NCBI GenBank assembly: GCA_950295325.1
Contig: OX485804.1
Span: forward strand, 63,702,533-63,766,532
Direction: 5' to 3'
Length of the DNA: 64,000 nt
From: Polytrichum commune
Taxonomy: Eukaryota > Streptophyta > Polytrichopsida > Polytrichales > Polytrichaceae
This document shows, piece by piece, positions 9,900-50,105 of the stretch (position 1 is its first letter; every line of letters begins with the position of its first letter). Position numbers and translations under genes: made by a program. The notes below the pieces were generated by a model. The model saw only the letters and a program-made list of their open reading frames with translations. It was not told the origin of the DNA and did not search any database.

Positions 9900-11008
9900 C
9901 AGGGCATAAAATTGACACCCTGGGGGGTGTATTTTGCTTCCTAGAGTGTCCTAGGACACCCAAATCTCAAACAGGGTGTCCCCGAGGACACCCAAAAATC
10001 CTACAAGGGTGTCCTTTTTACACCCAAAAAAAATTCAGGGTGTCCCCTGTACTTGTAGGGCCTATCAGCGGATACCAAATTTGTGGCATGAATTTTGGAC
10101 ATTTCTAGAGGTGGTGAGATCCATTTTCAAGACTCTACAGGAGTGGTGCATTCACATATATTGCATTATGCACCATTGCCTCATGCAATTGAGTTTGGTG
10201 GTGATGGTACCCTCCATGGGTGCAAGGTGATTGCACGGGCCTATGTGGTTAAGGTGATAGAATCATTGCAGCAACGATTTCCTGATTTGAAGCTCTTCAA
10301 TGCAGCTAAGCTATTTAGCCCTGTCTGTTTTTCAACAGACTTGACACTTCTTCATCGAAATGCTCGTTTATGGCTTCAAAGTTTCATTGACCACTTCTGC
10401 ACTAATGGAGGGAATCTTTTTGATGAGCGTGGTTTAAAATCAGAGCTTCGAGGTTTTTTGGATACACTTCATATTTCATGTGGTGGTCTTAAAATGCACC
10501 AAGCTTGGATGGTTTATTCTTCCAATTTGGACTATGTTGGAAGATATCCTCATATGACAAAGTTGTGGCAAGCTGTTCTTGTAATTCCTGCTAGTACAGC
10601 TTCTTGTGAGAGAGGATTTTCTACTCAAAATCATATTAAATCTACTTTATGGTGTAGTTTGGTATTAGAGACTTTGGAAGCACAAATGAGAGTTGCAATG
10701 GCAAAAATCCCCATAGAGGCCATTGACTTTGAACAAGTATGGGTAAAGTGGTGTGCTATGAAAGGCCGCCGCTTGTAGGTTTGATTTGCATTGCAAGTTA
10801 TGATATGTAGTGATTTTTTTGATTTTTAATTGAGATTTTGAAATGATATTATATATTTTTCAAAATTGTACCTATTTTGACAAAAAAAAAAATTTAAGAG
10901 AAATTTATGAGGACACCCAAAAATTGGAGCAGGGTGTCCTTGGGACACCCAAAATTTGGGACAGGGTGTCCCCTGGAAATTTGGCTAGGGTGTCAAATTT
11001 ATGGCCTG
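9900..11008 (+). mobile_element. hAT transposon, internally deleted, nested
   Basis: The left end begins CAGGGCATAAAATTGACACC. The right end is the inverted copy with two mismatches over 22 bases. A perfect 8-bp target duplication, GTGCTAGT, lies at 9892-9899 and 11009-11016, the hallmark length for hAT. Multiple short GGACACCC / GGGTGTCC motifs crowd both subterminal regions (about 9921-10045 and 10911-10995), as is typical of hAT transposase binding sites. The 1.1-kb body keeps only the end of a transposase gene. Confidence 0.9.
10095..10778 (+). pseudogene. hAT transposase fragment (C-terminal dimerisation region)
   Basis: An open frame of about 227 codons ends with a hAT C-terminal dimerisation segment. 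The run LWQAVLVIPASTASCERGFS, followed by a leucine-rich tail, matches the family pattern of IPAS..SCER.FS. The upstream part (LFNAAKLFSP, then HFC..GG) resembles the region just before dimerisation in hAT-derived zinc finger 862-like proteins. The BED zinc finger and the N-terminal catalytic part are missing, and no ATG starts the conserved segment, so this is the 3' exon of an internally deleted element. It lies wholly inside the 9900-11008 element, in its + orientation. It could at most give a dimerisation-only product. hAT assignment is firm; function is unlikely. Confidence 0.85.
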
Positions 11009-15446: not shown

Positions 15447-15521
15447 CGGTAAAGACAGTAAGCGCTCGTAGAGAGAGATACTGAGAACACGTTGCAAATC
15501 AACAACAATAGACTCACCAAC

Positions 15522-18500
15522 ATGGCTGGGGATAACGGACTACCTGAAACATACCATCTTGAAGGAGGCAACAACTTTGGAGTTTGGGCTTACAGGATGA
15601 AGAACCTACTCCAGAAGGATGGACGTTTTCACTACTGTATTACACCGCCAAGCAAGATCATGAGCGAAGAGGAGAAGACAGCACGGCAACAAGTCATGAG
15701 CATCATCAACAACAATGCAAAGAATACTGCTCTTAAGCTCCTACGTCGATACCACGACCCACACGAATGCTGGACTGGATTGAAGACTAGGTACGAGTCC
15801 GACAGTGGCCCTCGGCGAGTCATGCTCATTGACAAATTTTTCTCTTTGAGAAAAACTGAATCCATCTCAATGGATGCCCATCTCACTGAAGTTAAAGAGA
15901 TTGCAAATCTCTTGGAGGAAGTTGACGTTAACATCCCGGAGGACATCATAGTGTACTATACACTCAAGAATCTGCCAAAGGAGTACGAAATTTTCAAACG
16001 CATGCAGATTGCCGGACAATCTCTACCCACGTATGAGCAACTCGAGGCTAAGCTGATTTCGGAGGAAACATCAATCAAGTTAGAGAACCAGCACAAGGAC
16101 GTTGGGGAGGATTTTTTCTCTCATCACGATCGGTTTCGAAGATCTGCCCCAAACGGACGGTATCAGCATCCGAACTCACAGCAGCAGAGACAACCCTACA
16201 ACTTCAGGCGCCTTTCCGACTCGGGAGGATCCTCACACGCCAAATCTCAACACCAGATGGAGGCGGGAGCATCTGCACCGAGATTTCAGCACACACACAA
16301 ACCCTCTGGTCCTACACAAAGGAACAACACCCAAACCACATATCAACCGAAGTATCGATCCAGGGGACCGGAGAAACCCAGGAGCGAAAAATGCAACTTC
16401 TGTGGCCTAGATGGCCACTTTGAGAGAGAGTGCGACCTGCGGTCAATCCTGGACCGCATGAAAGATTACGAGAATCATCTGCTACAACAACGGGAACGCA
16501 ACTTCGGCGGCCAGGTGCATCACATTGAAGAACCTGATGAATCGACTCATCACAACCAAGACTCACAACCTTTCGAATTCGCAGACCAAGTAATCGACGC
16601 TTGCTTGGTAGAACTAAATCTGTGTGAGACACCCTCACAGACTCCCTCTTGGTACCTAGATTCTGGAGCCACCCATCATGTCTCTGGGGACTCCTCAGTT
16701 TTTTCCTCTATTCGACCGACTAGCGGAAATCTTGTTAGGTCGGCAGGGGGTCATAGCCATCAGGTCACTGGGATCGGAAATGCCGATGTCCAGCTTACAT
16801 CAGGAAAAATAAATTCTATTTCTTCCGTGCTTTACACCCCGGGCATTACCAAAAATCTCATCAGTGTAGGGACCTTAGCAGATCAACACAAAATCCTTGT
16901 GTTTAGATCAAACGGTTGTTTCATCATTGACAACACTACCCTCAAGGTAGAGATCTTCGCCCCAAGAGAAAACAAGAAGGGTCTCTATAAACTATCAGGC
17001 GTACACACATCTCTGGCACCAGAAGTTAACATGCTATACCCTAACTCTCAAGCAAGACTGTGGCATATGCAACTCGGCCATTTTCATACCAAAGGCCTAC
17101 AGAGGATGATCAACTCTGAAGCCGTAAAAGGGCTTCCTCCACTCCGTTTTTCACGGTACACATGCAACGGATGCCAACTCGGCAAACACTCCCGAACTAA
17201 GCTACCCAAGCAAACTTCCAACTCAGCCTTTCAAATCCTTGAGCTGATTCATTCTGATGTGTGTGGCCCCTTTAGGGTCCCCTCACTTGGAGGTCACAAA
17301 TTCTTTGTCACCTTCATTGACGATTTCTCACGAAAAATGTGGATATTTTTTATCAGCCACAAAAGTCAAGTGCTGTCCAAATTTCAACACTTTGTTCATC
17401 TTGTTGAAACATCCATAGGAAAAAGGGTACAAGCTCTCCGCACGGACAACGGTGGTGAGTTCACTTTGAAAGCCTTCTCCGAGTTCTGTGCCTTGAAAGG
17501 CATTTCCAGGGAGCTCCCCCCACCGTACACACCAGAACGTAACGGAGTTGCCGAAAGGAGGAACCGCTCACTCCTTGACATCACCCGGTGTCTGCTGATC
17601 GATAAACAACTTCCCGGGTACCTGTGGGGTGAAGTTGTCAAGGCAGCTGGCGACATTCTGAATCTACGCTCCACCAAAAAACATCCCGATAGAACTCCAG
17701 AAGAGTTTTTCACGGGTAAGAAACCTTCCATTTCACACCTTAAAATCTTCGGCTCACCAGCCTTTACCCATGTTCCTAAGGTTGATCGGTCGAAGCTTGC
17801 TCCGCGCTCCGAACAATGCATTCTCCTAAGTTTTGATGCAACTGCAAAAGCCTACCGATGTTACAGACCCTCTACACGAAAAGTTTTTATATCTCGCGAC
17901 ATTTTTGTCGACGAAGTTGCTCCCCCTCAAGCATGTGAGCAGGCAGATCCTAAGGACAAGCCCCTGGTCGACAACACCCCAGCTCCGACCAAACGAGAAG
18001 AACTCATAACTTTTTCCGATCAACACCTGCAGCCCCCACCGCGTACATCACCTGATGGAAGCGGCTCGCCGCATCGCTCTCCTACGACAATATCGCCTTA
18101 GTCTGCATCAACACCGACCATCTCCCTCCCCGCCGACACAGTTCATGAACAATTCACTGCCGAATCTGCTGAACCTGCACCATCGCCAACCCTATCGAAA
18201 CCTCCCACCATTGATCCTCCACGTCGATCCGACAGGATTCGACGCTTCCCTCGACATCTTCATAACTACACCGCGCATGTCCAACTACAAACCCCAGACC
18301 TCATTCCAGAGGACTTCACCGACAACATTACATTTAAACAGGCTCAACTCAATCCCCACTGGAGAGCGGCCATGCAAGAGGAGCTTGACTCCATCTACAG
18401 TAACCACACTTGGTCCCTTGTACCACTACCTCCTCACACAAAATCCATCACTTCTCGGTGGGTGTTTAAAATCAAAACAGGTACCAGCGACCAAACACGC

Positions 18501-19848
18501 TTCAAGGCCCGATTAGTTGCTCGCGGTTTCGAACAAACCAACGGAGTAGACTTTCTGGACATTTTTGCACCTGTCGTCCGATGGGAGACTATTCAGACAC
18601 TTCTCGCTATTGCAGTACACTTAAATTGGCCTATTCACCAATTGGACGTGCTCACCGCCTCCTCAACGAGATTCTAAAAGAGGATGTTTACATGGTCCAG
18701 CCTCCCGGTTTTATCAAACCAGGCATAGAACACCTTGTGTGTAAATTGCACAAGGCTCTCTACGGACTCAAGCAGAGTCCCCGAGCCTGGTATGCTCGGC
18801 TCCATGCCACTCTCCTAGCTTGGAATCTTTTTCAATCGCACTCCGACCCCAGCCTATACTACGCCCACATTGGCAATGACACCATTGCTTTGCTAGTTTA
18901 TGTGGACGATATCCTTCTCACAGGAAGTAACACTCGGCTCCTCACCCAACTGAAGACCCATCTCCATCAGAATTTCCAACCAAAGACCTCGGTCCTATCA
19001 CTCGCTACCTCGGAGTCCAATTCGAGCGCAACCCGAATTGTCTACGGATGCACCAAACTGAGTACGCACTTAGTATCCTCCAACAATTCGGCATGGATCA
19101 CTGCACTCCCTCTCAGACTCCTCTTCCCGAAGGATTGCTTCTCTCGAAACAGTCTGCAACACCTCCAGTTGACGCTACACTTTACCGCATGCTTGTTGGT
19201 AAGCTTCTTTTCCTAACTAAAACTCGTCCCGATATTTCGCATGTTGTTAGCGTGGTCAGCAGATTTATGCAAAACCCACAGGAAATTCACCTTCAAGCTG
19301 CCAAACACATCTTGCGTTATGTCCGCCGCTATCCTGACCTAGGCTTGTCTTTTCGACAAGGGGAGGACAACTGTCTGAGGGGATACATTGATGCGGATTA
19401 CGGCCAGGACATTGACGACAGAATTTCCGTGGGCGCCTATATCTTTTTTCTCGGCAATTCTCCTATATCCTAGAATTCAAAGAAGCAGTCTAGTACTTCC
19501 CGGTCTTCATGTGAATTAGAATATAGAGCCTTAGCTAAATGGTCATGTGAAGCAGTGTGGCTTCGGAGATTGTTAGCTGAACTTTGAATCTTGGATGACA
19601 AACCTACCACCATTTATTGCGACAACCAGAGCAGTATAAAACTTAGTTATAACCCAGTTTTTCACGAAAAATCAAAACATTTCGAGATTGACTATCACTT
19701 CACCAGACAGAAGGTCGAAAACAATACCATCAGGGTTGAATTTATTTCCTCCCAGGAGCAACCCGCAGACATTCTTACAAAGTCTCTTGGACGACTCAAG
19801 TTTGACAACTGCAGGAGTAAGCTACACCTTTGCAGCCCTTTCACTTGA
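15522..19848 (+). pseudogene. Copia gag-pol polyprotein, broken
   Basis: From the ATG at 15522 the frame gives gag with a zinc knuckle (CNFCGLDGHFEREC, about residue 290), an aspartic protease (LDSGATHHVSG, about residue 380), the GAG-pre-integrase zinc region (H..H with CNGCQLGKH), and an integrase core with HSDVCGP, RTDNGGEF and NGVAERRNR. A TAG at 18099-18101 (CAG in the ancestor would fit) interrupts the linker. Reverse transcriptase continues in frame to about 18660, where one missing base shifts it; a second lies near 18975. The YVDDILL active site is intact. RNase H (YCDNQSS, then the DILTKSL end) follows, with stops at 19471-19473 (TGG to TAG would fit) and about 19585-19587. The start was chosen because the upstream codons have no ATG and MAGDNG is typical of Copia gag. 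Confidence 0.93.
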
Positions 19849-24114: not shown

Positions 24115-24928
24115 GGAAGTTGATAACCATCAGCCAGCAGTGGTGTTCGAGAACTGAACGAAACCGAGAAATACATATACAACTGCAGGCAAACCTCAAA
24201 CTCATTCCACCTTCCCATCCATCTAGTGCTTATTCAAGCTGAGGTAGTCCACCATTTTGTGCATAACTGAGCTGTGATGATTCAGCTCAATTACTCTTCA
24301 CAGACTCGGAAAGCCTTTTTGTGAGTTTTCCGTGAGTCCATCCGTCGAGTTTTTTTTGTACAATGTGCATTGACAATTAATATTATTGCACCTGACACAG
24401 CTACAACTTGTCATAGACTCCATACTTGAGATACGAGTCTAACAACACTTTCAGTACATGCAACCGCAGTTAGTGGCAACTGATCAGCACGGATCGATCT
24501 GCAAGCTTGGAAACTCTTTGCTGTTGAAACGTTTGCAACTCGAACGCATAGTTGGGTTAGTCAGTTGTCTTCCCAGAGTGGGACAGAGTTCGGTTCGCCA
24601 CCGAGAGTGGCCGTAGCCCACTGTCGAAGAGCCTCTTCAATTCTGCTTGCCACTTCCTCGGACCCGACGTTTCTTTCATTCATTCATTCTTTCTATCTTT
24701 CCATATATCTTCATGTCTACGTGTCTATCAGGAATTGAAAGTTATTGACCCCCAAAAGCTGGCAGGAGCCCGCAATCAAAGAGCCTCTTCAATTCTGCTT
24801 GCAAATTCCTCTGGAACCCATTGTATCTATCTATCTATCTATATGTCTATCAAGAATTGAAAGTAGTTGACCCCCTGGCTATTGAGAGGAGGAGATTACG
24901 TACGGAGACTCCAAGCTGCATTCAGAAG

Positions 24929-25450
24929 ATGAAGGTGGTGGACATGGTTGCGGTGGTGATGCTGATGCTGGCATGTGCCAGCGCCTGGATCATAGCCCCT
25001 GCGAGTGCAGCGTGCAATCGCACGATTGTGTTCTACCAGTTCGACGACCGGTCGACCTCAGCGGCTGACTCGCCTCTCGTCACCAACTCGACGAAGGGCT
25101 TCATTGCCCTCATCGACCAGGCGATCACGGCGGGCGTGAACACGACGACATCCGCGGTCGTTGGGCGCCAGTACGGCTCAATCAGCGCGTTCTACAACAC
25201 CACCGATCCGAACGGGATCTTCCACCTTTACGCGTCGCTCGATCACCGCATCTCCACCAAAGAATACACCGGCACGTTCCTACTGCAGGGCTCCTACTCG
25301 GACGTCGACAACACGCGCACGTTGTCGATCACGGGCGGCACTGGCGACTTCCTCCTCGCGCGCGGCTGGGCCATCGAGACGTTTGCTATCGGCAGCGCCA
25401 CCGTCGCCCCCGCGGTCGTGCGTTACGAGTGCCACTTGATTTTGCCGTAG
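24929..25450 (+). CDS. Dirigent-like secreted protein
   Basis: A 173-residue protein. The start at 24929 was chosen because the next 28 residues form a clear signal peptide (MVAVVMLMLACASAW core, small residues ASA before ACN). The mature part fits the dirigent / allene-oxide-cyclase-like beta-barrel fold: VGRQYGSISAFY near residues 78-89, a GTFLLQGSYSD strand near 115-125, and the family signature GGTGDFLLARGWA near 136-148. Dirigent proteins act in the apoplast and steer stereoselective phenoxy-radical coupling in lignan and lignin chemistry. The substrate here cannot be read. Its GC content is much higher than the surroundings. There is no intron in the coding part. Truncated copies lie just downstream. 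An allene-oxide-cyclase-like identity is the main alternative. Confidence 0.78.
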   Translation: MKVVDMVAVVMLMLACASAWIIAPASAACNRTIVFYQFDDRSTSAADSPLVTNSTKGFIALIDQAITAGVNTTTSAVVGRQYGSISAFYNTTDPNGIFHLYASLDHRISTKEYTGTFLLQGSYSDVDNTRTLSITGGTGDFLLARGWAIETFAIGSATVAPAVVRYECHLILP

Positions 25451-32944: not shown

Positions 32945-33526
32945 TTTCCTCCAATTTCCCTAGGCTTAATACATTCAAATGACGTGTGCTTTTAGTGTCA
33001 AAACATTATGAGTATATTTTCTAGATTAAAAAACATGTTCAATGACTTTCACATTGGAAAGCGAAAGTAGTTTAGTAATGAAACGAATGTTTATTAATTT
33101 CATGATTTATATTTTGTGTATGTAGTGGAGGCATGTATCACATTAAATTGAAAAGCTTAGTATAAATACACGAGTTCATTTTTATCCTACTATCAGGACA
33201 TATAGTCTGATGTGCATGGGTGACTATGAAACACACACATGATGGTGGACTCTTCATTGGAAATTTGCATATGCCTAGGACCCTACAACATACATTTATT
33301 GTCATTTTTCCATTTATAAACTTTCAAATCTCCCTTCGTACACTTAACTATACATTAAATTCTTAGTAGGTTCTTTGGTTGTACACACTAGAGAATAAAA
33401 GAAACCTCCCCTTTATGAAATTACTACACATGTTAATGCCTCAAATAATACCCTTGTATACACTCAAGTTAGTTTGTATGTGGTATAAAGAGTGACCCCC
33501 TGCTTGCCTTCCCTGCAAAAATACCC

Positions 33527-33966
33527 TGTCACGTGAGGCGACATCGGGGGCTAAGTCACGTCAAATTAGGAGTAAATGGACTCCATTAGGAGTCCATGTG
33601 TGTTTGGATGGATTATGGACTCCATTGGGAGTCCTAGTTAGTTGTTCATCCACTCCATGGATGAAATCCACATAGGATTGGGGTTATGTGGAGAGGAAGG
33701 CATCTTGACTTGCCATTGTTGTCAAGTCAAGTCTTGTGAGTGTGTTTTGAGAGAGAGAGAGCTTGTTGTTGCTATCTTATGGCTATGGTGTAGTAGATCA
33801 TGAGTAAAGCCTTTGCATTCTTTCTCCATCACTTGCACTCTTGGATTCTCCCTTTGTGGAGTGAGAGATAGCTTGACTCTTGTGTGTGAATTTCAGAGTT
33901 TCTTAAGCTTTGTAAGGAGATTTCTTAGTTTCTTGAGCTTGGAGAGAGAAACCCTCATACTTGACA
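33527..33966 (+). repeat. Gypsy 5' LTR, 3' portion missing
   Basis: It is highly similar to 43128-43559 until ACCCTCAT, after which about 100 bp present in the 3' LTR is absent and only a short CTTGACA end remains. The exact end is uncertain. Confidence 0.75.
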
Positions 33967-34070
33967 ACAATTGCGCTTATTTTTCATTTTTGGTTGTATT
34001 TCTGAGCTAGAAGGGCCCAGTAGTGGGAGCAAATGAGTGATACAAGTGTATGAAAGCTTAGTTTGCAATT

Positions 34071-34474
34071 ATAACACGCTCAGATGAATTCAACGCGAAT
34101 CGAACCCGGACCGTATTAATACAACACGCACGTCCTTATCCAACCAACCTTGGAACCATGACTTGGTGACCAACAACACAATCAACCATCATTTATACTC
34201 AAACAAATACGCACGCTTCCCGTCTCCAATGAAGTAGAAAAACCCACACAATTCTAAATTAAAACCCATGCACCCTACACACCACCCTCCCCCCCCCCCC
34301 CCGGTTCAACCGGTTAAAACATCGGTTACTAACATAGTGTCTACTCCCTGCAAAGGGTGAAGTAGTATTACACCCAACGCCGCTACCCTGGGGTACGGCC
34401 ACGGTTGTCCTACGAACAGACACTTTATTCACTCCGGTCCCTGGTAGGGACCGGAGTTCTTCTTTCTTCTTTCT
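34071..34474 (-). mobile_element. 404-bp retroposed insertion in the Gypsy leader, SINE-like
   Basis: It is flanked by perfect 13-bp direct repeats TTAGTTTGCAATT (34058-34070 and 34475-34487). On the minus strand it carries a good B box GGTTCGATTC (34098-34107) and an A-box-like TGGTTGGATAAGG (34134-34146), spaced as in a tRNA gene. It also has a 14-base C run and a 10-bp-arm hairpin (34432-34457). The tRNA-like part lies near the distal end rather than at the head, so SINE is a tentative label. Confidence 0.5.
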
Positions 34475-34719
34475 TTAGTTTGCAATTCCTTGCAACCCTC
34501 AAGAAGATTTTGAGAAAAATCTTCACATTTCTCTTTTGGTGTCTCTTTGTGTTTTCTTGAATTCTTGATGGTTGAATCTTGAGACCAAATGGAATCTCAA
34601 GTCACATCTTTCTTGCTTGCAAATTGTGGAAGCAAAGTTTAATTTTTGTTCTTTTAAAACAAACACAACAATAAAATAAAACAACAATTAAATAAAAATC
34701 CGATTTGTTTTTAATTGTT

Positions 34720-35310
34720 GAGCTCCGGACGGATCCGGAGCTCACCGGACCCTCCTGGAGCTCCTGGAGCTCCTGGAGCTCCGGTTCTGCAAGGGGGCGG
34801 GCGGCGCAGGCCGGGCCGGGGCCGGGCAGCTAGGCGGGCGGGCGGGCGGCGCCAGCCAGGCCCAGGTAAGCCTCCTAACTTTTATTTTTTTATTTTTATT
34901 TTTATTTATTTTATTTTAAAAAAAAGCATTATTTTTATTTTTATTTTTTATTTTCACATTTTTACTTTCACCTTTCAAACTTGGCATTCAATTCTCACAA
35001 ACTTTGAGGTTCAAATTTGGGGGCATACTAGCTCCGATTGGAGTGAAATTTGAGCCTATCTTGTGTGAAATTTGCCAAGGAATCCAATGGTGTAATTGGA
35101 TTGCTGATTGGAATTCAAAATCATTGCTGAAATTATTAATTTCAACGCTGATTTTTGTTTTTGGGAGCAAATTAACTCCGAACGGAGTGAAATTTGACCC
35201 TAATTTGTGTGAAATCTTCCTAGGAGTCCATTGGTGCAATTAGTTTGTTGATTGGAGTCCATAATCACCTTGGAAATTAACATTTTCAACGCTGATTTTT
35301 TAATTTTAAT
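34720..35310 (+). repeat. Gypsy leader: GC-rich hairpin, GGAGCTCCT repeats and a 142-bp duplication
   Basis: GAGCTCCGGA and TCCGGAGCTC form a 10-bp hairpin at about 34720-34743, followed by repeated GGAGCTCCT and a G/C-rich run to about 34865. Two similar units of about 142 bp (about 35019-35155 and 35161-35300) share GGAGTGAAATTTGA, TTTGTGTGAAAT-type and TTTCAACGCTGATTTTT stretches. These belong to the untranslated leader before gag. Confidence 0.6.
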
Positions 35311-35460
35311 TACCAATCTCAAACCTTTGCACAATTTTGGAGTTCTGGGGGCCTAAATAAACACTTGGCATTTGGCAAGGGATTGCCATTTAGATAGCCC
35401 GCAACAGGTGCAGGTTGCCATTACCTTGTAGATAGTTGCCGGTACTCAAGTGATTATTTT

Positions 35461-38250
35461 ATGGTGCAAACTAGGAGCCGATATTATCAATCTCCATCAC
35501 CAGATTACTTGGAGGACGTGCATACCACAAATCTTGAGCCAGAGGTAGATACCAACGAGGCTTTTGAGCCTATTTCGGCGTTGGACACTACTAGTAGGCT
35601 TCGGATTTGGAGTGTTGGCACGTTCGACGAAATGGACGACGATCACCACGGTTCAGTGCGTGATCGGTTCTCAGGTCGAGCTGGGGGCATTTCCTTGCCC
35701 GATTGGAAACTCCGGTTTCGTACCTGGATTAAGGAGAAACGCCAAAGGTCTTCCAATTTCAATGATTGGTATGCCTTTGAACTTCTGCCTCAGCATTTGG
35801 AGTATGAGGCACTCCAAACTTACGAACGTTGGACAGAGGGTCATCAGCGACAACTTCGGGAGGTGGAGCAGTATTGGGAGGCCCGAGTTGAGCTTATTTT
35901 AGCCCTTAAAGATGGGGCGATTGCCACCTTAGCTCCACCCACCTTAAAGGAGGAGGATCCACCGGAGGAGTCTAAGGACCAAGAACTGGCCCTTGGGCCA
36001 ATATATAGTGGTTGGCAGTAGCACGGCTACCCTTTCACGGATGGCACGTGCTACACAGGCAGCATTGACAGCTGTTGGTCCACCACCTCCATTTAATCCC
36101 CTTGCTGAATTTGTCGCACATTTGGAGTTGGAGTATGGTGGATTTCGGCGAGACCAGATGCAGCGCATTCAAGATTTCCGCCGAGAGAAGGATGACACTC
36201 CACGGACCATGTATACGCGACTCGCACGCTTTGCTGTTGAGTCGGGAGGTGTTTTTGCTGAGAGTCAGCTTGTCAAAATCTTTCTGTCTAAGATTGACAA
36301 ACGGCTACTTGAGTTGGCATCACCTCGGATTATCCTCGACTACGAAGGCAGAGCTACGCTTGCACAAGCGTTTGCCGTGGTTGAAAGATGTGATCGGGCT
36401 CTTTGTCAACACGATGCCACAGACATGGTATCTTGGATGACAGAAAGTACGAAATCAAGAAGAATTGTCACAACTACTAGTAGTTTAGCTGAGACTCAAA
36501 CCATTAAGGAGCAAAAGATTTTGCATTGTTTGGGTTGTGGAGAAGCTGGTCATTCGAAGAATGATCCCAATTGTCCTAAAAAAAAGAAAACCCAGCCTTT
36601 GGGAAAATTAAAACAAAAGATAGAACCAGTAAAGGCAGGGGACAACTCTAAGAAGAGACAATTGAAATGTAACCATTGTGGTGGCACTAATCACGATGTG
36701 GATCATTGTTTCCAACTGCATCCTGAGATGCGGCCTGCCAGTTATGTCACTGGCAAATCTCCAAAGGAGCAGAGTTTTGAGGCTAAGGTGGCAGAGCTTG
36801 AGCAAAAGCTCAAATCTTTTGCATCTTTTGCTCAAATTTCTGAGCCGCATGCGGGTGGTGGCACCTCGGGTTCGGACATGTATATGTTTGGAGCATCTGG
36901 AGAGGTGGTGGCTGCGGCTTCTACTCAATCACAAACATTGGCAAATGCGGTGGCTTCTACAAGTGGTGGTAGCAACGAGGTGTCACATCCTCGCCATGCC
37001 GGACCAGCGGATCAAGTTGGTCAAGCATGTTTACCTCTCTCATTTGGATTGGTAGACACCGCTGTTGTTGGGGTTAAAAACCATGTACCTTTGAGAGATG
37101 GGGATTCCATCTCGAAGGATGTTACGCAGGCATTGGCATATAAAATTCTCCATATGCTAATTTTCTCGGGTTCGGAGTTGATGGCTCCGGATTTCAAGCC
37201 TGCTGGAGTTTTTCATTTAGCTGGGAAAGTGTTAGAAGGAAAGGCGGATTTGCCATCCCTTCAAGTATCCCAAGCTGTTGTTGACGTACCTGTGGCTGAG
37301 GAGATGCATGACTTAGCCAATTTACGAGCGAGCCTTGCGGATGCGGCGATCATTGTTTTTGGTAAGCACATTGATATTCCTCCATCAACAATTCCAGCAG
37401 TGGACACGTCTTTTTCGAATTATGCAGCGGGAGCAGCATATCTTGCAGATATTTCTGCAAGGCCTGTGCGCGAGCGGCATAATTTGCAACCTGGAGTTGT
37501 ACGGCTGATGAACGACAAATCTTTGTTTGTCGTTTCACGCGCGGATATGCCTACTATTCGTGCTACACCACTGAGAGTTATGATGGATTCTGGTGCTCAA
37601 CCGGTTATGATTGGCAAAGGACTTGCTGACAGTCTTGGATTGACGCCAACAAACTTAGATCCTTGTCCATTCACAATTGTGACTTCAATAGGGGGCACTG
37701 AACGTGTAACAGGTTACACCAAGGCACCTCTACGTTTGATTTTTAATGTGGGGACAAGACCTACCTACACTCATTTGTCAATGAAGTGTGTTGTTACTAA
37801 TGCTACCAACTATGATGTACTTGTTGGTCAGCAAGCTCTTTATTCACTTGGCTTTGGTTTGGATAATTGGACTGAAGAGGCATGGATTAGACCGGGATGG
37901 TCTTCTGGAGATGGCATGAAGGTATTTATTCCTGTAGCATTTGCAGCTACTTCTATGACAATGGTTGCGGAGGCAATGTTTGGTTGCAGCGGTTCAGTTG
38001 CAGATTTGCCTTGTGCTCTAGTTTTGTTGGAGGAAACATTGGACTACGCTTGTAATGCAGCAGAACAACAAATTTTGCCATCTTTACAAATTTCTGCTCG
38101 ACATTTCAAGGATCCACCTCCACCATGGCGTATTCCTAAGGAGTTATCCGACCATTGTCGACACATTGTAGCGGATTTGGAGCTTGGAGAGACACCTCCA
38201 ACGTCATCCTCATTTTCTTTTATTCAACCCATTCGTTGGCAACCACCACC
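35461..38250 (+). pseudogene. Gypsy gag and aspartic protease
   Basis: The start at 35461 (MVQTRSRYY) opens a gag frame. Around 35950-36015 the reading moves to the next frame, which then stays open to 38404. That second frame holds a retrotransposon gag core (FRREKDDTPRTMYTRLARF), a first knuckle CLGCGEAGHSKNDPNC with unusual spacing, a canonical second knuckle CNHCGGTNHDVDHC (C-x2-C-x4-H-x4-C), a coiled stretch, and a retropepsin domain with VMMDSGAQPVMIG (Asp codon 37586-37588) and YDVLVGQQAL. The gag-pol frame change may be a decay mutation or a natural frameshift; one copy cannot tell. The gag-protease linker is long. Confidence 0.85.
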
Positions 38251-39286
38251 TGAAGGTATTGTCCTTGTAGAAATCTTTGGGGCATTGGCACAGGTTTGGC
38301 GGCAGTGTTGGAGGCTGGGATTACAGTTAGGCGATATATTCATGTGGATAATGGATATGCAGCCAACAGAGCCGTCCGACACCACATTCAACAATTGTTG
38401 TTGAGGTACCCCGCACAATTGTCACCCTCTGCCATTATTGGATGTTGTGGTCAACTTCCTCAAGATGTCACTATGATTAGTGATGAGGATTTGAGAAGAT
38501 TGGGCCACGTGGATTTAATTATTGCAGGATGGCCTTGTCAAGGCCATTCACGGGCAGGAACTGGCCAGGGTTTGGATGATCCTAGGTCTAGTTTGTTCGC
38601 GGATTTGATACGATTGACATAATGATGGTTTACCTACCAATCAACTCCATCAAGGTACATTTAAAAATGTGCCATTATTGGGTGATATACGGCACAAAGT
38701 GGTGAAGGATGGTGAGTACATTAACCAAATTCTGGGTACTCCAACATTTCTGGATTCTGCATCCTTGGGATCCTTTGCTCATCGACCTCGTTGGTTTTTG
38801 ACCAATTTGGTATCACCTCAGGTGCTTTCAGCAGCGATCGCCCGCATTCCCCGCCTTATGAATCGCAAGGTGGATGACATTTTAGATGCTCATCGTGTTT
38901 CTTTGGCAGTTACCAAGGATGACACCTTGCCATTTGCATTAATTAACAAGGTGGGAATTCCGAGAGGTGCACTACCTACTTTTGTGACATATCCACGGTC
39001 TTTTGCATTTCGATCTCGTGGACCAGGCATGGTTTGGGTTTTAAAATCCCAAACTCATGATGAGCCTATGGCAGATGAGCGGGAACGAGCCATGGGTTTT
39101 CCTACATGCACCATGGCTGCTCATGGGCTTCAGGAAGGTCAGAGACGTTTCCTATTGGGACAAGCTATGGATCTCAATAGCATTGTGTGGATAATTGGAA
39201 TTTGTCTTGCTGCTCAACAACGTATGGATGATCAATTGCTTCCTCTGAGGGCAGAGAACAATGGTCATGGGGCAATGGAGCAGTAA
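38250..39286 (+). pseudogene. C5 cytosine DNA methyltransferase domain carried by the Gypsy element
   Basis: Between protease and reverse transcriptase lies a C5-methyltransferase of about 330 residues, which would methylate cytosine using S-adenosylmethionine. Motifs in order are GIVLVEIFG then GTGLAAVLEAG (motif I, cofactor loop), IHVDNG (motif II), LIIAGWPCQGHSRAG (motif IV; nucleophile Cys codon 38536-38538) with GLDDPRSSLF after it, a KNVP segment where family members carry ENV (motif VI), HRPRWFLTNL (motif VIII), then RERAMGFP and RRFLLGQAMDLN (motifs IX-X). It is broken by a one-base loss in the G run of motif I (near 38280), stops at 38620-38625 and a two-base frame change near 38660. 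The frame then runs to a stop at 39284-39286. Family membership is firm. Subfamily (Dcm, DNMT1 or DRM-like) is not. Confidence 0.85.
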
Positions 39287-39298
39287 TCCAAGGATCTC

Positions 39299-39559
39299 AT
39301 GGAGATCAATGACACCGAGGGATTATTTTCTTTGAAACAACATGTTGCAGAAGAGTTTCGAGCCCAACGTGTTTTTTCGGCTTTGGCCCAAGATTTTGGG
39401 AAGTTGGAGGCCCATAAAATGTTTCTACTTCTATTTCTTAGTGACACTTCATATGTGGGTAGCTATTTAGCTACACAAACTGATTGTAGTGGAGAGGATA
39501 CGCATTTGGATTCAAGTACAGATGATGGGGGCAAAGGTGTTGCCCTCTCCACGGACTAG
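39299..39559 (+). pseudogene. Linker between methyltransferase and reverse transcriptase
   Basis: It continues the methyltransferase frame after a single TAA (39284-39286) and ends at TAG 39557-39559, after which the frame is again open to about 39640. It has no recognised domain, though a helical stretch (LKQHVAEEFRAQRVFSALAQ) is visible. It shows that methyltransferase and reverse transcriptase were probably one polyprotein. Confidence 0.6.
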
Positions 39560-39639
39560 CAATCACAGGCTGTGCTGGCACTAAGTAGCAATCCTTCTAT
39601 GAAGAAGGAAACCACGGAGTTGACGATTGGCCAATTGAA

Positions 39640-42600
39640 GTGGGGCCAAAACTTACTGGTGTCGAAGCACGAAAGGTACGGGCATTTATTCGCTCTTACC
39701 GTAATTGTTTTGCCTTTAGTCTTCATGATCTTGAAGGATATAAAGGTAAACCTGTTCGTATTCAACTCGAGGACGACCATCATATTTTCAGACAGCCGTA
39801 CAGACTTAGTACATCTGAAAGGTTGGGTGTTCAAACTCGATGTCAAGAATTATTGGCAGCAGAATTGATTGAACTCTCCAATGCTTGTGCCACGGTTATG
39901 CCTTCAAAGAAAGATATCTTTGGCAACTGGACGGAAAAACGGATGTGTGGTGATTATCGTCCAGTCAACCGTAAGACCAAGTCGGATCGATATCCAATGC
40001 CAATGCCAGAGGAGTTGTTTGATGCACTGGGATTTGCTAGAATCTTCAGCACTCTGGATTTGAGGTCTGGTTATCATCAATTACCTTTGTTGTTGGATGA
40101 TCGGGTGAAGACTGCATTTTAGGGAATTGATAAAGATGGCAAAGATCAACTTTATCATTGGAAATTTTTGCCATTTGGTCTTAAGAATGCACCGGCTGAA
40201 TTTCAGCGGGTGATGGACCAATTATTGGCTGGTTTACCGTTTGCTAGATGTTACATTGATGATGTTATCATCTTTAGTAATAGTCCACAGGATCATGTGA
40301 GACATTTGCAAGCGGTATTTGAACGACTACAACAGTGGGGACTCTGATTACATCATAACAAATGTAAGTTTTTCCATGATCAATTGCCCTATTTAGGCCA
40401 CATGATTGTTCCTGGCGGTCTTGGTGTGCAACAGACGAAGGTGGATGCTTTGCACAAAATTCCCGCACCTAGTGATGTACCATGACTTCGGGCATTTCTA
40501 GGATTGGCAAATTATTATAGAAGGTTTGTCAAAAACTTTAGTTTGATTGCCAAACCTCTCACCATTCTCACGGGGAAAGACCAACTATGGATTTGGAGTC
40601 GGGAACAACAACAAGCATTTGATACATTGAAGCAGAGGCTCGGTTCAGCGCCAGTGCTTCGACACCCGGATGTGTCTAGAGCTTTTCAATTGCACACGGA
40701 TTGGAGTGCAGTGGGATTGGGAGCGGTATTGATACAGAAAGATGAAGAGGAAAAAAAAAATGTGGTGGCTTATGCATCTAGAAGCAATAATAATGCTGAA
40801 TCTAATTATTCTTCTTATGAAGGCGAGGCCTTGGTGGCCGTTTGGGCCATTGCACATTTTCGACCTTATTTATATGTGCAAAAATTTACTTTGGTGACTG
40901 ATCATCAGCCTTTAAAATGGCTTATGGAATCAGATAAACTCACCGGGAAACTTGCTAGGTGGGCATTGTTACTTCAAGAATATGACTTTGAAGTTGTTCA
41001 CCGAGCAGGAATTGCCAACTTAGATGCAGACGGATTGTTTCGCAATCCAAGTCCTTTAGATGAGGATTTAACTGGAGCCAGGTGGCATGGGGATTGTGAT
41101 CGTGAGGCAGTGCCGGGTTGGCATGCTGCCACATATCTCACAATGATGTCGGGATTGGTTGCTGAGATCCTTGTGGAAGAACAAGATGAGGAGGTTGATA
41201 AATCTCTCGTTGTTAGTGATGTGTGGGAAGACCAGGCGGTCTTGCACAAACTTCAACAAGGGATATTTCCTCTTGGACTATCTGCTATGGAGCGAGATAG
41301 AGTTAGTCATCGAATAACAAGGTTTCGTTGGGCAAACGGCTTGTTATTTCGTGTGTGGCCAAACGGAACGAGGCGCATCGTTCCAAGGCCAGATCAAAGA
41401 GCTTCTTTAGTGCGGCAAGTGCACGAGGAGCTTGGACATTTTGGAGTGCGAAGGACACACTCTATGTTGCGCAACCAATATTAGTGGACTGGGATGTATC
41501 AACAGGTTGCCACTTATGTTTCTAGGTGTGAAGTGTGTGACCGGGTCATGTCAAGTTTTAATACTTTATCACCTCAACTTCAGCCTTTACCTATTATGGA
41601 CTTGGGATATCATTGGTCTTTGGATTTTGTCGGACCGCTTACTATCACTCCACGTGGGGCAAAGTATGTACTTGTGATGGTGGAGCATTTTAGTAAGTGG
41701 ATTGAACTCGTGGTTCGTCCCCAAAATTCCTCAATATTGGCGGCTATGGCATTTCTTGATCGAGTTTTGGCACGGTTTGGAGCACCTGCAGAGGTGTTGA
41801 CGGATCAAGGGAGAGAATTTCTTGGATCTTTCGAGGCTTTGTGTACTAAGGCTTTGATTGATCATCGAACAACTTCCAGAGATCACCCTGAGACAGATGG
41901 CTTAGCTGAACGAGTTGTTTAGACTGTCAAGCGTGGTTTGCGGAAGTATGGGTTGTTTCATGGCAACCATCGCAATTGGGACTTGATGTTATCATGGATA
42001 GCAATGGGTTACCGTTTCAGTAGGCAAACATCTTTGGTATCCTATAGTCCTTACCAACTCTTGTATGGACGGGAACCAATTTTACCTAGCTCTGTGCGAG
42101 AGAAATTGGCTAATGTGGTAGACTTGGATGATCCAGATGTTTGGGCTCAATGTCTTCATGACCGAGCATAATTCTTTCAAAAGGCCATGCCTATGGCCAT
42201 GGAGAACTTAAACATAGCTCAATATCGTGATACATTACGGTATGCCCGGATCCGCAGTGGAGCTTATCGACCTCAGGTTCGTAGATTTTCCAAGGAAGAT
42301 TATGTTTACTTGCAACGGGAGGCGCCTACGACATTGGATGTCAAGGTTGGACGCACAATTTTGCGGGTAAAAGATGTTTTACCAAGTGGTATATTATTGC
42401 TTGAAGGCAAGGATGGACGGGAATATCGTGAGCATTCAAAGAATTGTGCTCCATGTCACCTTCCCATCGACGGCTCTGTGCATCCCGAGTTGGCGGTTGT
42501 ACCACAGGGTCTGCCTTGTTATGTGTGGAGAGAGAAAAAAGGAGCTGCAACGATGTTATTGTGCGACCATTGTCAACGTGGATGGCACATGGCATGTTTG

Positions 42601-42693
42601 ACACCTCCCATTTTTACTCTTCCTTTTGGCAATTGGGTTTGTCCTCGTTGTCGGAAAGCCTCCCACTCCATGGCCGTTAATGGTCATGATTAG
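39640..42693 (+). pseudogene. Gypsy reverse transcriptase, RNase H, integrase and PHD finger
   Basis: One frame of about 1,018 codons is interrupted only by stops at 40120, 40345, 40483, 41482, 41920 and 42169, with no frameshift. Reverse transcriptase: CGDYRPVNRKT, STLDLRSGYHQ, active site YIDDVIIFS. RNase H: HTDWSAVGLGAVL, SSYEGEALVAVWA, TDHQPLKWL. Integrase: H..H..CEVC zinc region, then LDFVGPL, LTDQGREF and PETDGLAERV (D, D, E). A basic C-terminal domain follows. The last about 50 residues are a PHD finger (MLLCDHCQRGWHMACLTPP, then WVCPRC). Its second zinc ligand, expected after CYV, is Trp. The start is set by homology (VGPKLTG); a frame change joins it to the preceding segment. The frame stays open after 42693 to 42924. 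Confidence 0.92.
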
Positions 42694-43008
42694 GGACTTT
42701 GTGAATGTTTGCCACATGTCTTAGTGGTGAAGTTGTTATCTAGTTGGTTGGAAGTTTTATGGGATTGGAAATCACATTGGGAGAGTTATCAAAAAATTCA
42801 ACATAAATTGTTGAAGGCGATTAAGGATGGGGCTCACATTGCACCCAGCCTACAGTTCTTAGGTTACTTCCTCAACCATGAATTTAATTCCTTAGATTAC
42901 CACTACCCAATTGGATATGTATAGATGTAGCTACAACTTCATCATGTTCAACACCTCTACCGATGAGTGTGTTTGTTCCTAGCCGATTGGAGGGGCTCCT
43001 TATCTGCT

Positions 43009-43015
43009 AGGGGGG
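43009..43015 (+). promoter_or_regulatory. Possible Gypsy polypurine tract
   Basis: AGGGGGG lies about 110 bp before the 3' LTR. A polypurine tract usually abuts the LTR. Here a copy of the LTR's own end (43018-43126) intervenes. Confidence 0.4.
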
Positions 43016-43017
43016 CA

Positions 43018-43126
43018 CTTGAAGAGGTGGTTGTTTAGCATATTAATTTGCTATGTTTATTTTGTTAATTGATGTTGATGACGACACTCGATCTGTTGTG
43101 TTTAACGATATTAGTTTACACGACAG
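43018..43126 (+). repeat. Extra copy of the LTR end just before the 3' LTR
   Basis: CTTGAAGAGGTGGTTGTTTA through TTTACACGACA repeats with a few substitutions at 43560-43667, the last 108 bp of the 3' LTR. It thus precedes and follows the 43128-43559 block. Confidence 0.85.
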
Positions 43127-43127
43127 C

Positions 43128-43667
43128 TGTCACGTGAGGCAACATCGGGGGCTAAGTCACGTCAAATTAGGAGTAAATGGACTCCATTAGGAGTCCATGT
43201 GTGTTTGGATGGATTATGGACTCCATTGGGAGTCCTAGTTAATTGTTCATCCACTCCATGGATGAAATCCACATAGGATTGGGGTTATGTGGAGAGGAAG
43301 GCATCTTGACTTGCCATTGTTGTCAAGTCAAGTCTTGTGAATATGTTTTGAGAGAGAGAGAACTTGTTGTTGCTATCTTATGGCTATGATGTAGTAGATC
43401 ATGAGTAAAGCCTTTGCATTCTTTCTCCATCACTTGCACTCTTGGATTCTCCCTTTGTGGAGTGAGAGATAGCTTGACTCTTGTGTGTGAATTTCAGAGT
43501 TTCTTAAGCTTTGTAAGGAGATTTCTTAGTTTCTTGAGCTTGGAGAGAGAAACCCTCATCTTGAAGAGGTGGTTGTTTAGCATATTAGTTTGCTATGTTT
43601 ATTTTGCTACTTGATGTTGATGACGACACTCGATCTATTGTGTTTAACGATATTAGTTTATATGACA
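43128..43667 (+). repeat. Gypsy 3' LTR (540 bp)
   Basis: It starts TGTCACG and ends ATGACA (short inverted ends TGTC and GACA). The first 432 bp match the 5' LTR closely. The last 108 bp are absent from the 5' LTR but related sequence is present in the solo LTR at 2244-2583, which supports this boundary. Confidence 0.8.
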
Positions 43668-43891
43668 ACCCCTTTATATTGGGTGGTTCATATATGTATA
43701 GGGTAATGCACTAAGGGGAGGGCATTGTGGGATTTTTTTGAGGGCAGTGGTTGGAAATCCCATAATGCTTGACCCAAAGTTCAATACACTGCATCAAGCA
43801 TGTCTATTTTTCCTTGTACAATGTGTATTATGCCCTGTGTGAAAGGCATTATGAGTAAAGATTTGTACAAGTGGGCATTCCACACAAGTAA

Positions 43892-45988: not shown

Positions 45989-46327
45989 ATGGCTACGCCA
46001 CTGCTAGCCGGGATGGCGGTGGCCGCAACGGCGATGGGGGCAAAATACGGGATTGAAGCATGGCAAGCATACAAGGCACGGCCCGCTACCGCGCGTCTGC
46101 GAAAGTTTTATGAGGGTGGATTTCAGCCAGTGATGACAAGAAGGGAAGCGGCACTTATTCTGGGGGTGCGGGAGAGCGCGGCCCAGGACAAGGTGAAGGA
46201 GGCACATCGCCGCGTCATGCAGGCCAATCATCCGGACGCTGGAGGTAGTGATTTTATTGCCTCCAAAATCAATGAAGCTAAGGACCACCTTCTTGGCCAA
46301 AAACGGGGTAGTGGATCTGCCTTTTGA
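45989..46327 (+). CDS. TIM14: Mitochondrial import motor J-protein, TIM14/PAM18
   Basis: A 112-residue protein, the same length as plant TIM14. It acts at the mitochondrial inner membrane, where its J domain stimulates the matrix Hsp70 of the presequence translocase motor. Residues 4-20 (PLLAGMAVAATAMGAKY) form the membrane anchor. The KFYEGGFQPVMTRREAALILG segment (39-59) is typical of the family. The J domain covers about 50-106, with the HPD tripeptide at 81-83 and SKINEAKDHLLG at 92-103. ATG 45989 was chosen because it gives the canonical MATP start. The coding part has no intron. The leader shows three related copies of GAGCTTGCTNGTAG (about 45133, 45296, 45969), and an AG acceptor-like site (TCGCAGGCG) lies 27 bp upstream, so the 5' UTR may be spliced. 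All key residues are intact. Confidence 0.93.
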   Translation: MATPLLAGMAVAATAMGAKYGIEAWQAYKARPATARLRKFYEGGFQPVMTRREAALILGVRESAAQDKVKEAHRRVMQANHPDAGGSDFIASKINEAKDHLLGQKRGSGSAF

Positions 46328-49593: not shown

Positions 49594-50105
49594 TAATGTG
49601 TTATGCAAACGATATCTGCGGATGTGTTATGCATCAAAATCTCTGGAATGTGTTATACGCCGGTCCCAAATCTACAAATGTGTTATGTACTAAATCCAAA
49701 TTTACAAATGTGTCATCCGTCATATTCATATTTACAAATGTGTCATGCACTAGATCCAAATTTACAAACGTGTCATGCACTAGATCCTTATTTATAAATA
49801 TATTATGCGTCATATTCATATTTACAAATGTGTCATGCACAAGATCCAGATTTACAAATATATCATGCATCATATTCATATTTACAAATGTGTCATGCGT
49901 CATATTCAAATGTGTCATGCACTTGATCCAGATTTGTGAATGTGTCATACATCATATTCAAATTTACAAATGTGCTATGCACTACATCCAAGTCTGCGAA
50001 TGTGTCATGCACTAGATCCACATTTTGAAAAATGTGTTATGCGCTCAATCCATATTTGCAAATGTATTATGCGTTTGATCCATATTTACAAAATGTGTTG
50101 TGCAC
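49594..50105. repeat. 30-bp minisatellite, about 17 units
   Basis: The unit AATGTGTCATGCACTAGATC plus CAAATTTACA alternates with a GTCATATTCAT variant. Because 30 is a multiple of three, frames stay open on both strands, producing a 183-residue and a 104-residue ORF that merely repeat TNVSCTRSKF-like decamers. No gene is implied. Confidence 0.9.

What the first reader, a model, noticed from the sequence alone, without database searches (positions are those of the whole stretch)
38250..39286. A plant Gypsy retrotransposon that carries its own cytosine DNA methyltransferase between protease and reverse transcriptase
Seen: ordered C5-methyltransferase motifs (IFG..GTG, HVDNG, GWPCQGHSRAG with GLDDPRS, HRPRWFLTNL, RERAMGFP, RRFLLGQAMDLN) inside an element with gag, protease, reverse transcriptase, RNase H and integrase. 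Known: cytosine methyltransferases have been reported in LTR retrotransposons of a charophyte alga and of dinoflagellates. I know of no well-described land-plant case with this layout. Inference: the element may once have methylated its own or host DNA, for example to hide new copies, to bias targeting or to counter silencing.
Basis: partly seen in the sequence, partly recalled or inferred. Interest (0 to 1): 0.92.

Follow-up and report, generated by a model that had tools for sequence, protein, structure and literature searches.

The report
Plant jumping gene carries DNA methyltransferase
A family of retrotransposons in a land-plant genome, with relatives in liverworts and Sphagnum moss, carries its own DNMT3-like DNA-methylating enzyme and has kept it under selection; such elements were so far described from dinoflagellates and a charophyte alga.

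Summary
Window 38240-39217 encodes a broken DNMT3-type cytosine methyltransferase (MTase) between protease and reverse transcriptase of a 10.1 kb Gypsy element (33527-43667). It is no one-off insertion: 38 of the 40 best integrase copies in this genome have MTase DNA in place. Of 123 scored PF00145 matches 18 lie in open frames of at least 1350 aa. MTase dN/dS is 0.16-0.25 between copies at dS 0.189-0.265. Relatives occur in Marchantia, Calypogeia and Sphagnum. Three features went unseen: (1) gag-protease-MTase ends at an in-frame TAG in TMV-type leaky context (TAG CAA TCA, 21 of 21 copies; TAG CAA TTA in two family II copies), so RT-integrase should need readthrough and the MTase lies on the Gag side; (2) the ends are DIRS-like split repeats (A...B-A-B), yet flanked by 4-bp target duplications, as integrase makes; (3) a PHD finger follows the integrase. 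The charophyte element KnitGypsy-Dnmt3 (2018) is published with DIRS-like repeats too; I could not compare sequences. New variant of a known kind. Activity and substrate are untested; methylating the element's own cDNA is the likeliest role, by inference.

The parts
33523..33526 (.). target-site duplication ACCC, left
   Evidence: matches 43668-43671
33527..33963 (+). repeat A1 (element starts TGTCACG)
   Evidence: 98.4% to A2; boundary from copies
35461..37000 (+). gag with two CCHC-like knuckles (frame broken near 36000; 3' limit approximate)
   Evidence: ORFs; zf-CCHC scored in relative P0014
37565..37708 (+). aspartic protease (DSGAQ)
   Evidence: PF13650 2.6e-4, PF13975 1.3e-3; both below the curated cut-off
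38240..39217 (+). DNMT3-type cytosine-C5 methyltransferase domain, broken here
39218..39556 (+). linker between the MTase and the stop
39557..39565 (+). TAG CAA TCA, putative leaky stop
   Evidence: 21 of 21 copies; 4 of 1834 TAGs in the window, both strands, are followed by CARYYA
39566..40500 (+). reverse transcriptase
   Evidence: PF00078 9.6e-4 on a piece, below cut-off
40594..40983 (+). RNase H
   Evidence: PF17917 1.7e-36, PF17919 8.7e-35
41389..41889 (+). integrase: H2C2 zinc part and DDE core (frame broken between them)
   Evidence: PF17921 4.6e-5 (below cut-off), PF00665 1e-14
42529..42651 (+). PHD finger after the integrase
   Evidence: PF00628 2.3e-8; CHD4, PHF12, KAT6A and PHF21A PHDs in PDB
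43010..43017 (+). G-run plus CA directly before B1, polypurine-tract-like
   Evidence: sequence; also in a family II copy
43018..43125 (+). repeat B1
   Evidence: 94% to B2
43128..43563 (+). repeat A2; B1|A2 junction ACGACA-GC-TGTCACG
43560..43667 (+). repeat B2; element ends in CA
43668..43671 (.). target-site duplication ACCC, right

Best explanation
The feature is a decayed copy of a large Gypsy family of a land plant (probably a moss) that carries a captured DNMT3-type cytosine methyltransferase as a selected domain of the element. Open copies would make Gag-protease-MTase as the main product; occasional readthrough of a TMV-type UAG would add RT-RNase H-integrase-PHD. The MTase would be packaged with Gag, reach the element's DNA while it is copied, and methylate cytosines of that DNA (or of the target site) before or during integration. 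The integrase then inserts the unit A-genes-B-A-B and makes a 4-bp target duplication. Shown by sequence: domain identity, order, selection, conserved stop context, repeats and duplications. Inferred: readthrough in cells (about 0.85), packaging (about 0.6), self-methylation of cDNA as the main role (about 0.4).
For: Domain. Cys of PCQ and E-N-V invariant in 30 aligned relatives (4 of the 34 hits left out because their MTase is damaged or cut). Copies and open frames. Presence tested from the integrase side: 38 of 40. dN/dS 0.16-0.25 within family II at dS 0.189-0.265; families I and II differ by dN 0.26-0.29 with saturated dS. Leaky context in 21 of 21 family I copies and in the two family II copies read; at least one copy has both frames open on either side of the TAG. 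B-A-B in 16 of 21 family I copies including the window and in one of two family II copies. 4-bp duplications perfect in 9 of 12 two-ended family I copies including the window, 3 of 4 bases in the other 3, and perfect in one family II copy. Precedent: SymbioDIRS-Dnmt3 DNMTs methylate CG in yeast (PMC5890265, section read).
Against: No expression, methylation or readthrough data. The K. nitens retrotransposon DNMT gave no activity in yeast, called inconclusive by its authors. Among 21 family I copies the shared-versus-private variant test shows no constraint on the MTase, nor a significant one on RT or integrase. Family II pairs at dS 0.05-0.19 give dN/dS 0.18-0.78 and very young pairs 0.2-1.6. 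Open-frame copies were preferred, which favours intact ones. Only 4 of 21 family I copies have the whole MTase query stretch without stop or frame break. C-to-T decay affects CG, CHG and CHH alike, so it points to no specific enzyme.
Confidence: 0.6

Rival explanations
1. The MTase methylates host or rival DNA rather than the element's own cDNA (for example marking target chromatin, or silencing older copies), guided by the PHD finger of the same element.
For: PHD finger after the integrase, close to CHD4- and PHF21A-type PHDs in PDB, which I recall as readers of unmodified H3; copies decay by C-to-T in all contexts, as expected of methylated DNA.
Against: MTase and PHD lie in different products, on either side of the leaky stop; host enzymes (a DRM exon is present, L049) could cause the decay alone.
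Confidence: 0.25
2. The domain is kept as a nucleic-acid-binding or structural part of the particle and has lost catalysis.
For: No activity data; the K. nitens enzyme was inactive in yeast. The window copy has K-N-V and broken frames, but it is a decayed copy.
Against: Cys of PCQ, E-N-V and R291 are invariant in 30 aligned relatives (damaged rows left out), and the domain is under purifying selection.
Confidence: 0.12
3. It modifies RNA (DNMT2-like), for example the genomic RNA in the particle.
For: It would sit with Gag and the genomic RNA; DNMT2-type chains are weakly matched (1.2e-5).
Against: DNMT3 chains score far better (3.6e-20).
Confidence: 0.05
4. A one-off host gene insertion, or contamination.
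For: Only that the window copy is broken.
Against: 38 of 40 integrase copies have it; matches lie on all seven large contigs.
Confidence: 0.01

Closest known systems
KnitGypsy-Dnmt3 (Klebsormidium nitens; de Mendoza et al. 2018, PMC5890265; outline, passages and sections 9-11 read)
   Same: Gypsy domains, Dnmt3-type MTase without introns, DIRS-like repeat arrangement, purifying selection on the MTase.
   Different: Its DNMT is reported inside the Pol ORF; here it ends the Gag-protease ORF before a leaky stop.
SymbioDIRS-Dnmt3 (Symbiodinium; same paper)
   Same: Dnmt3-type MTase and A-coding-B-A-B repeats.
   Different: Tyrosine recombinase instead of a DDE integrase; dinoflagellate host; the paper calls the Gypsy case unrelated to it.
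Algal-type Pol ORFs (P0160-P0191); only one has an eukaryote's name, the green alga Monoraphidium neglectum
   Same: Homologous MTase, RT, integrase and PHD (31-57% over matched parts).
   Different: MTase after RT-RNase H in one ORF in the 17 used for the tree; integrase after it in 16 of 17 (the Monoraphidium model ends there) and a matched PHD in 13 of 17. Some have a further C-terminal region.
Plant DNMT3 genes (e.g. PpDNMT3b, PMC6453930, passages read)
   Same: DNMT3-type MTase, motifs not rearranged as in DRM.
   Different: Host DNMT3s carry a C-terminal DUF3444 and act as host genes. None was obtained here for comparison.
RIRE2 of rice (named as a readthrough candidate among Gypsy elements in PMC2754532, passages read)
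   Same: Candidate stop-codon readthrough in a plant Gypsy element.
   Different: No MTase upstream of the stop (recalled).

Membership tests
C5 cytosine methyltransferase | PF00145 match and catalytic motifs | tested here: met
DNMT3 class | closest to DNMT3 rather than DNMT1, CMT, DRM or DNMT2 | tested here: inconclusive
   The profile ranks DNMT3A first; the tree places element MTases next to DNMT3A, but with only one DNMT3, one DRM fragment and long branches. No host DNMT3, CMT or MET1 sequence was obtained.
Ty3/Gypsy LTR retrotransposon | gag, protease, RT, RNase H, then DDE integrase | tested here: met
Ty3/Gypsy LTR retrotransposon | two plain LTRs | tested here: not met
   A...B-A-B split repeats in 16 of 21 copies; no B before A1 in 12 of 12 copies with at least 108 nt of flank
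Ty3/Gypsy LTR retrotransposon | short target duplication, TG..CA ends | tested here: met
DIRS/PAT elements | A-coding-B-A-B repeats | tested here: met
DIRS/PAT elements | tyrosine recombinase, no target duplication | tested here: not met
   rve integrase; 4-bp duplications. The lack of duplications in DIRS is recalled; no search for a tyrosine recombinase was made beyond Pfam on the ORFs.
KnitGypsy-Dnmt3 lineage | same clade as the K. nitens element | not testable with these tools
   no Klebsormidium sequence obtained
TMV-type leaky stop | UAG followed by CARYYA (consensus recalled) | tested here: met
TMV-type leaky stop | readthrough in cells | not testable with these tools
   needs a reporter assay

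The most novel reading that the evidence does not exclude
One DNMT3 capture by a green-lineage Gypsy element, older than the split of this bryophyte family from its algal-type sister clade, has since moved within the element: it sits inside Pol, after RNase H, in the algal-type clade, and on the Gag side of a leaky stop in the bryophyte-type clade. The Gag-side position would raise the MTase from a rare Pol-level enzyme to a bulk particle component, so that each new DNA copy is methylated before it meets the host: a retroelement that writes its own epigenetic state.
Probability: 0.25. Interest if true: 0.88.

Novelty: new variant of a known kind. Interest (0 to 1): 0.72.

Why it matters
Elements that carry their own de novo cytosine methyltransferase were reported from dinoflagellates and one charophyte (PMC5890265), and a paper states that land plants lack them (PMC6338049, passages). 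This family is abundant, partly intact and under selection, and relatives lie in a liverwort model, Marchantia polymorpha, and in Sphagnum. What a transposon gains by methylating DNA thus becomes testable in a tractable land plant. It also means that gene sets of bryophytes contain MTase genes that belong to retroelements rather than to the host.

Tried and rejected
One-off insertion or contamination: rejected by the copy survey. Shared-versus-private variants as a test of constraint among 21 family I copies: no signal for the MTase (nonsynonymous plus stop to synonymous 2.29 private, 2.46 shared) and no significant one for RT-RNase H or integrase, so taken as uninformative; only gag showed a shift (p 0.013). 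Related MTases in viral contigs: 7 loci, 25-55% over partial stretches; 4 of the 7 served as outgroup rows. Naming the C-terminal region of algal-type Pols from PDB: nothing significant. Host identification through light-harvesting proteins: not completed. A moss with seven chromosomes, such as a Polytrichales species, is a guess from contig sizes and recall; a paper search for a Polytrichum genome listed none. REM1 of Chlamydomonas was considered as a relative from recall only; the passages found do not describe its structure. Family II ends: the first copy showed no repeats, its 3' end being cut short; the second copy showed them.

Full report
Observation. The window lies in an unnamed 408 Mb genome in 64 contigs, seven of them of 42-78 Mb. 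In the window copy the MTase is interrupted and E-N-V reads K-N-V, so this copy is dead.

What kind of MTase. The open region of the copy L002 matches solved DNMT3A at 9.9e-9. A profile of seven relatives ranks DNMT3A first (3.6e-20), then DRM, HaeIII, HhaI and DNMT2 types. A tree of 53 rows (6 own copies, 41 of the 193 proteins held, one human DNMT3A, one host DRM fragment, four viral-contig MTases) puts all element MTases together (93/78), next to DNMT3A. They form two groups: a bryophyte type of 28 rows, joined by the unnamed P0177 (95/87), and a type of 17 rows with the MTase after RT-RNase H (97/89), into which P0192 with another order falls on a long branch. The references are few and long-branched, and the program warns of that, so 'DNMT3-type' rests mainly on the profile ranking.

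A family, not an accident. A DNA search returned 40 scored of 306 candidates, the 39 others at 92-96% identity. A PF00145 search scored 123 of 353 candidates, at least one of them a host DRM exon; 9 had an open frame of 1386 aa and 18 of at least 1350 aa. Because those searches start from the MTase, I also started from the integrase: of the 40 best copies (of 388 candidates), 30 had a listed MTase 1-5.5 kb upstream and 8 more had 620 nt or more of it in fetched stretches; one had only the last 78 nt in the stretch and one was undetermined. So no MTase-less sister lineage was seen among these 40. Twelve family I copies gave A1/A2 identities of 96.2-99.8%, three of them without a substitution; the window pair is 98.4%. 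Some insertions are therefore recent.

Selection. Twenty PF00145 pieces were fetched, mostly from open-frame copies; one is a host DRM exon (L049; DRM2 in PDB at 5.6e-52). The others form the window's family I (81-87% to the metagenome protein P0002) and family II (64-67%). Sixteen were compared (L044, L047, L049 and L054 dropped; L046 kept with one stop). Within family II, pairs at dS 0.189-0.265 give dN/dS 0.16-0.25, pairs at dS 0.05-0.19 give 0.18-0.78; between the families dN is 0.26-0.29 with saturated dS; very young pairs range from 0.2 to 1.6 on few changes. Against this, shared variants among 21 family I copies show no constraint on the MTase, nor a significant one on RT or integrase, so I read that test as powerless. 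In an alignment of 30 of the 34 hits the Cys of PCQ and E-N-V are invariant. Four were left out for a damaged or cut MTase: P0023, P0031, P0034 and P0035.

Leaky stop. The gag-protease-MTase frame ends at TAG CAA TCA in 21 of 21 family I copies (8 of them first seen). Two family II copies have TAG CAA TTA, although the two families are saturated at synonymous sites. At least one copy has 1386 open codons before the TAG and 1047 after it in the same frame; one family II copy has 1048 open codons after it, the other a further stop within RNase H. In the window only 4 of 1834 TAGs on both strands are followed by CARYYA. The consensus is recalled; the TMV sequence gave 32% readthrough in a transient plant assay and 6-10% in stable lines (PMC2754532, passages). 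Relatives P0002 and P0003 end at the same point of their proteins. Readthrough is not shown in cells.

Ends. Besides the A repeats there is a 108-nt B repeat on both sides of A2: A1...B1-A2-B2. B-A-B is seen in 15 of 20 fetched copies and in the window; in the other five a part is missing or lies outside the stretch. In 12 of 12 copies with at least 108 nt of flank no B precedes A1. The outer ends are TGTCACG and ACGACA (ATGACA in the window) with 4-bp duplications, perfect in 9 of 12 two-ended copies including the window and 3 of 4 bases in the other three. One of two family II copies shows the same arrangement, the same B1|A2 junction and a perfect duplication; the other is cut short. The paper on K. 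nitens says that the repeat structure of KnitGypsy-Dnmt3 is that of a DIRS element with Gypsy domains, and describes the DIRS arrangement as A-coding region-B-A-B. The B1|A2 junction abuts the two termini, as in a circle junction; whether replication passes through such a form is inference.

Distribution. In one search, 10 of 34 hits had an organism name: eight Marchantia polymorpha, one Calypogeia fissa, one Sphagnum fallax. One search found 236 hits, 120 listed, with Calypogeia fissa and Sphagnum troendelagicum named and one bacterial MAG name that I take for mis-binning. One search found 64, including algal-type Pols, Monoraphidium neglectum (a chlorophyte) and one more bacterial MAG name (P0193). 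No vascular plant and no Klebsormidium was named among the listed hits; most hits are unnamed and each search scored only 8000 candidates, so absence is weak evidence. The host of the window is a land plant by a dirigent gene at 24821-25450 (the restriction of dirigents to land plants is recalled), a DRM exon and its element's relatives; 'moss' is likely, not shown.

Mechanism. Most likely the MTase travels with Gag and methylates the element's cDNA, as its authors suggest for the published DIRS case (PMC5890265, discussion read), at a higher dose than in elements that keep it in Pol. Copies show private C-to-T changes about 5-7 times as often per site as A:T-to-G:C transitions, in CG, CHG and CHH alike (18.7, 14.6, 12.8 against 2.7 per 1000 sites). 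This fits DNA that is methylated once inserted, but does not tell by which enzyme.

Known or new. Paper searches (open-licence PMC only; most papers seen as listings, eleven opened for passages or sections) showed no land-plant case. A 2025 survey refers to the streptophyte and dinoflagellate elements of 2018 (PMC12344493, passages), and PMC6338049 states absence from land plants (passages). I file it as a new variant of a known kind.

Noticed in passing
P0160, P0167, P0170, P0182, P0184, P0192: 6 of 23 algal-type relatives checked carry, after the PHD finger, a C-terminal region with a DPW motif, some with SPW or APP motifs too, that may be a second methyltransferase fold; Pfam (three of them) and PDB do not recognise it.
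   Followed up: partly
P0060, P0035: A Sphagnum element groups with liverwort elements in the tree, and another is 51% identical to a Marchantia one, closer than to the window's family (34%): several old lineages, or transfer between hosts.
   Followed up: no
P0036, P0193: Retroelement proteins bear the names of bacterial MAGs (Candidatus Obscuribacterales, Spirochaetia), probably mis-binned eukaryote DNA.
   Followed up: no
window 42529-42651: The PHD finger is closest to CHD4, PHF12, KAT6A and PHF21A PHDs; DNMT3A itself reads unmodified H3 through its ADD domain (recalled).
   Followed up: partly
window 45989-46327: Uninterrupted Pam16/DnaJ-like ORF 2.3 kb downstream of the element, below Pfam's cut-offs.
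   Followed up: no
window 15492-19473: A Copia element with gag, integrase and RT.
   Followed up: no
window 10095-10778: hAT transposase C-terminal piece.
   Followed up: no
window 49610-50063: Tandem array with a 30-nt period.
   Followed up: no
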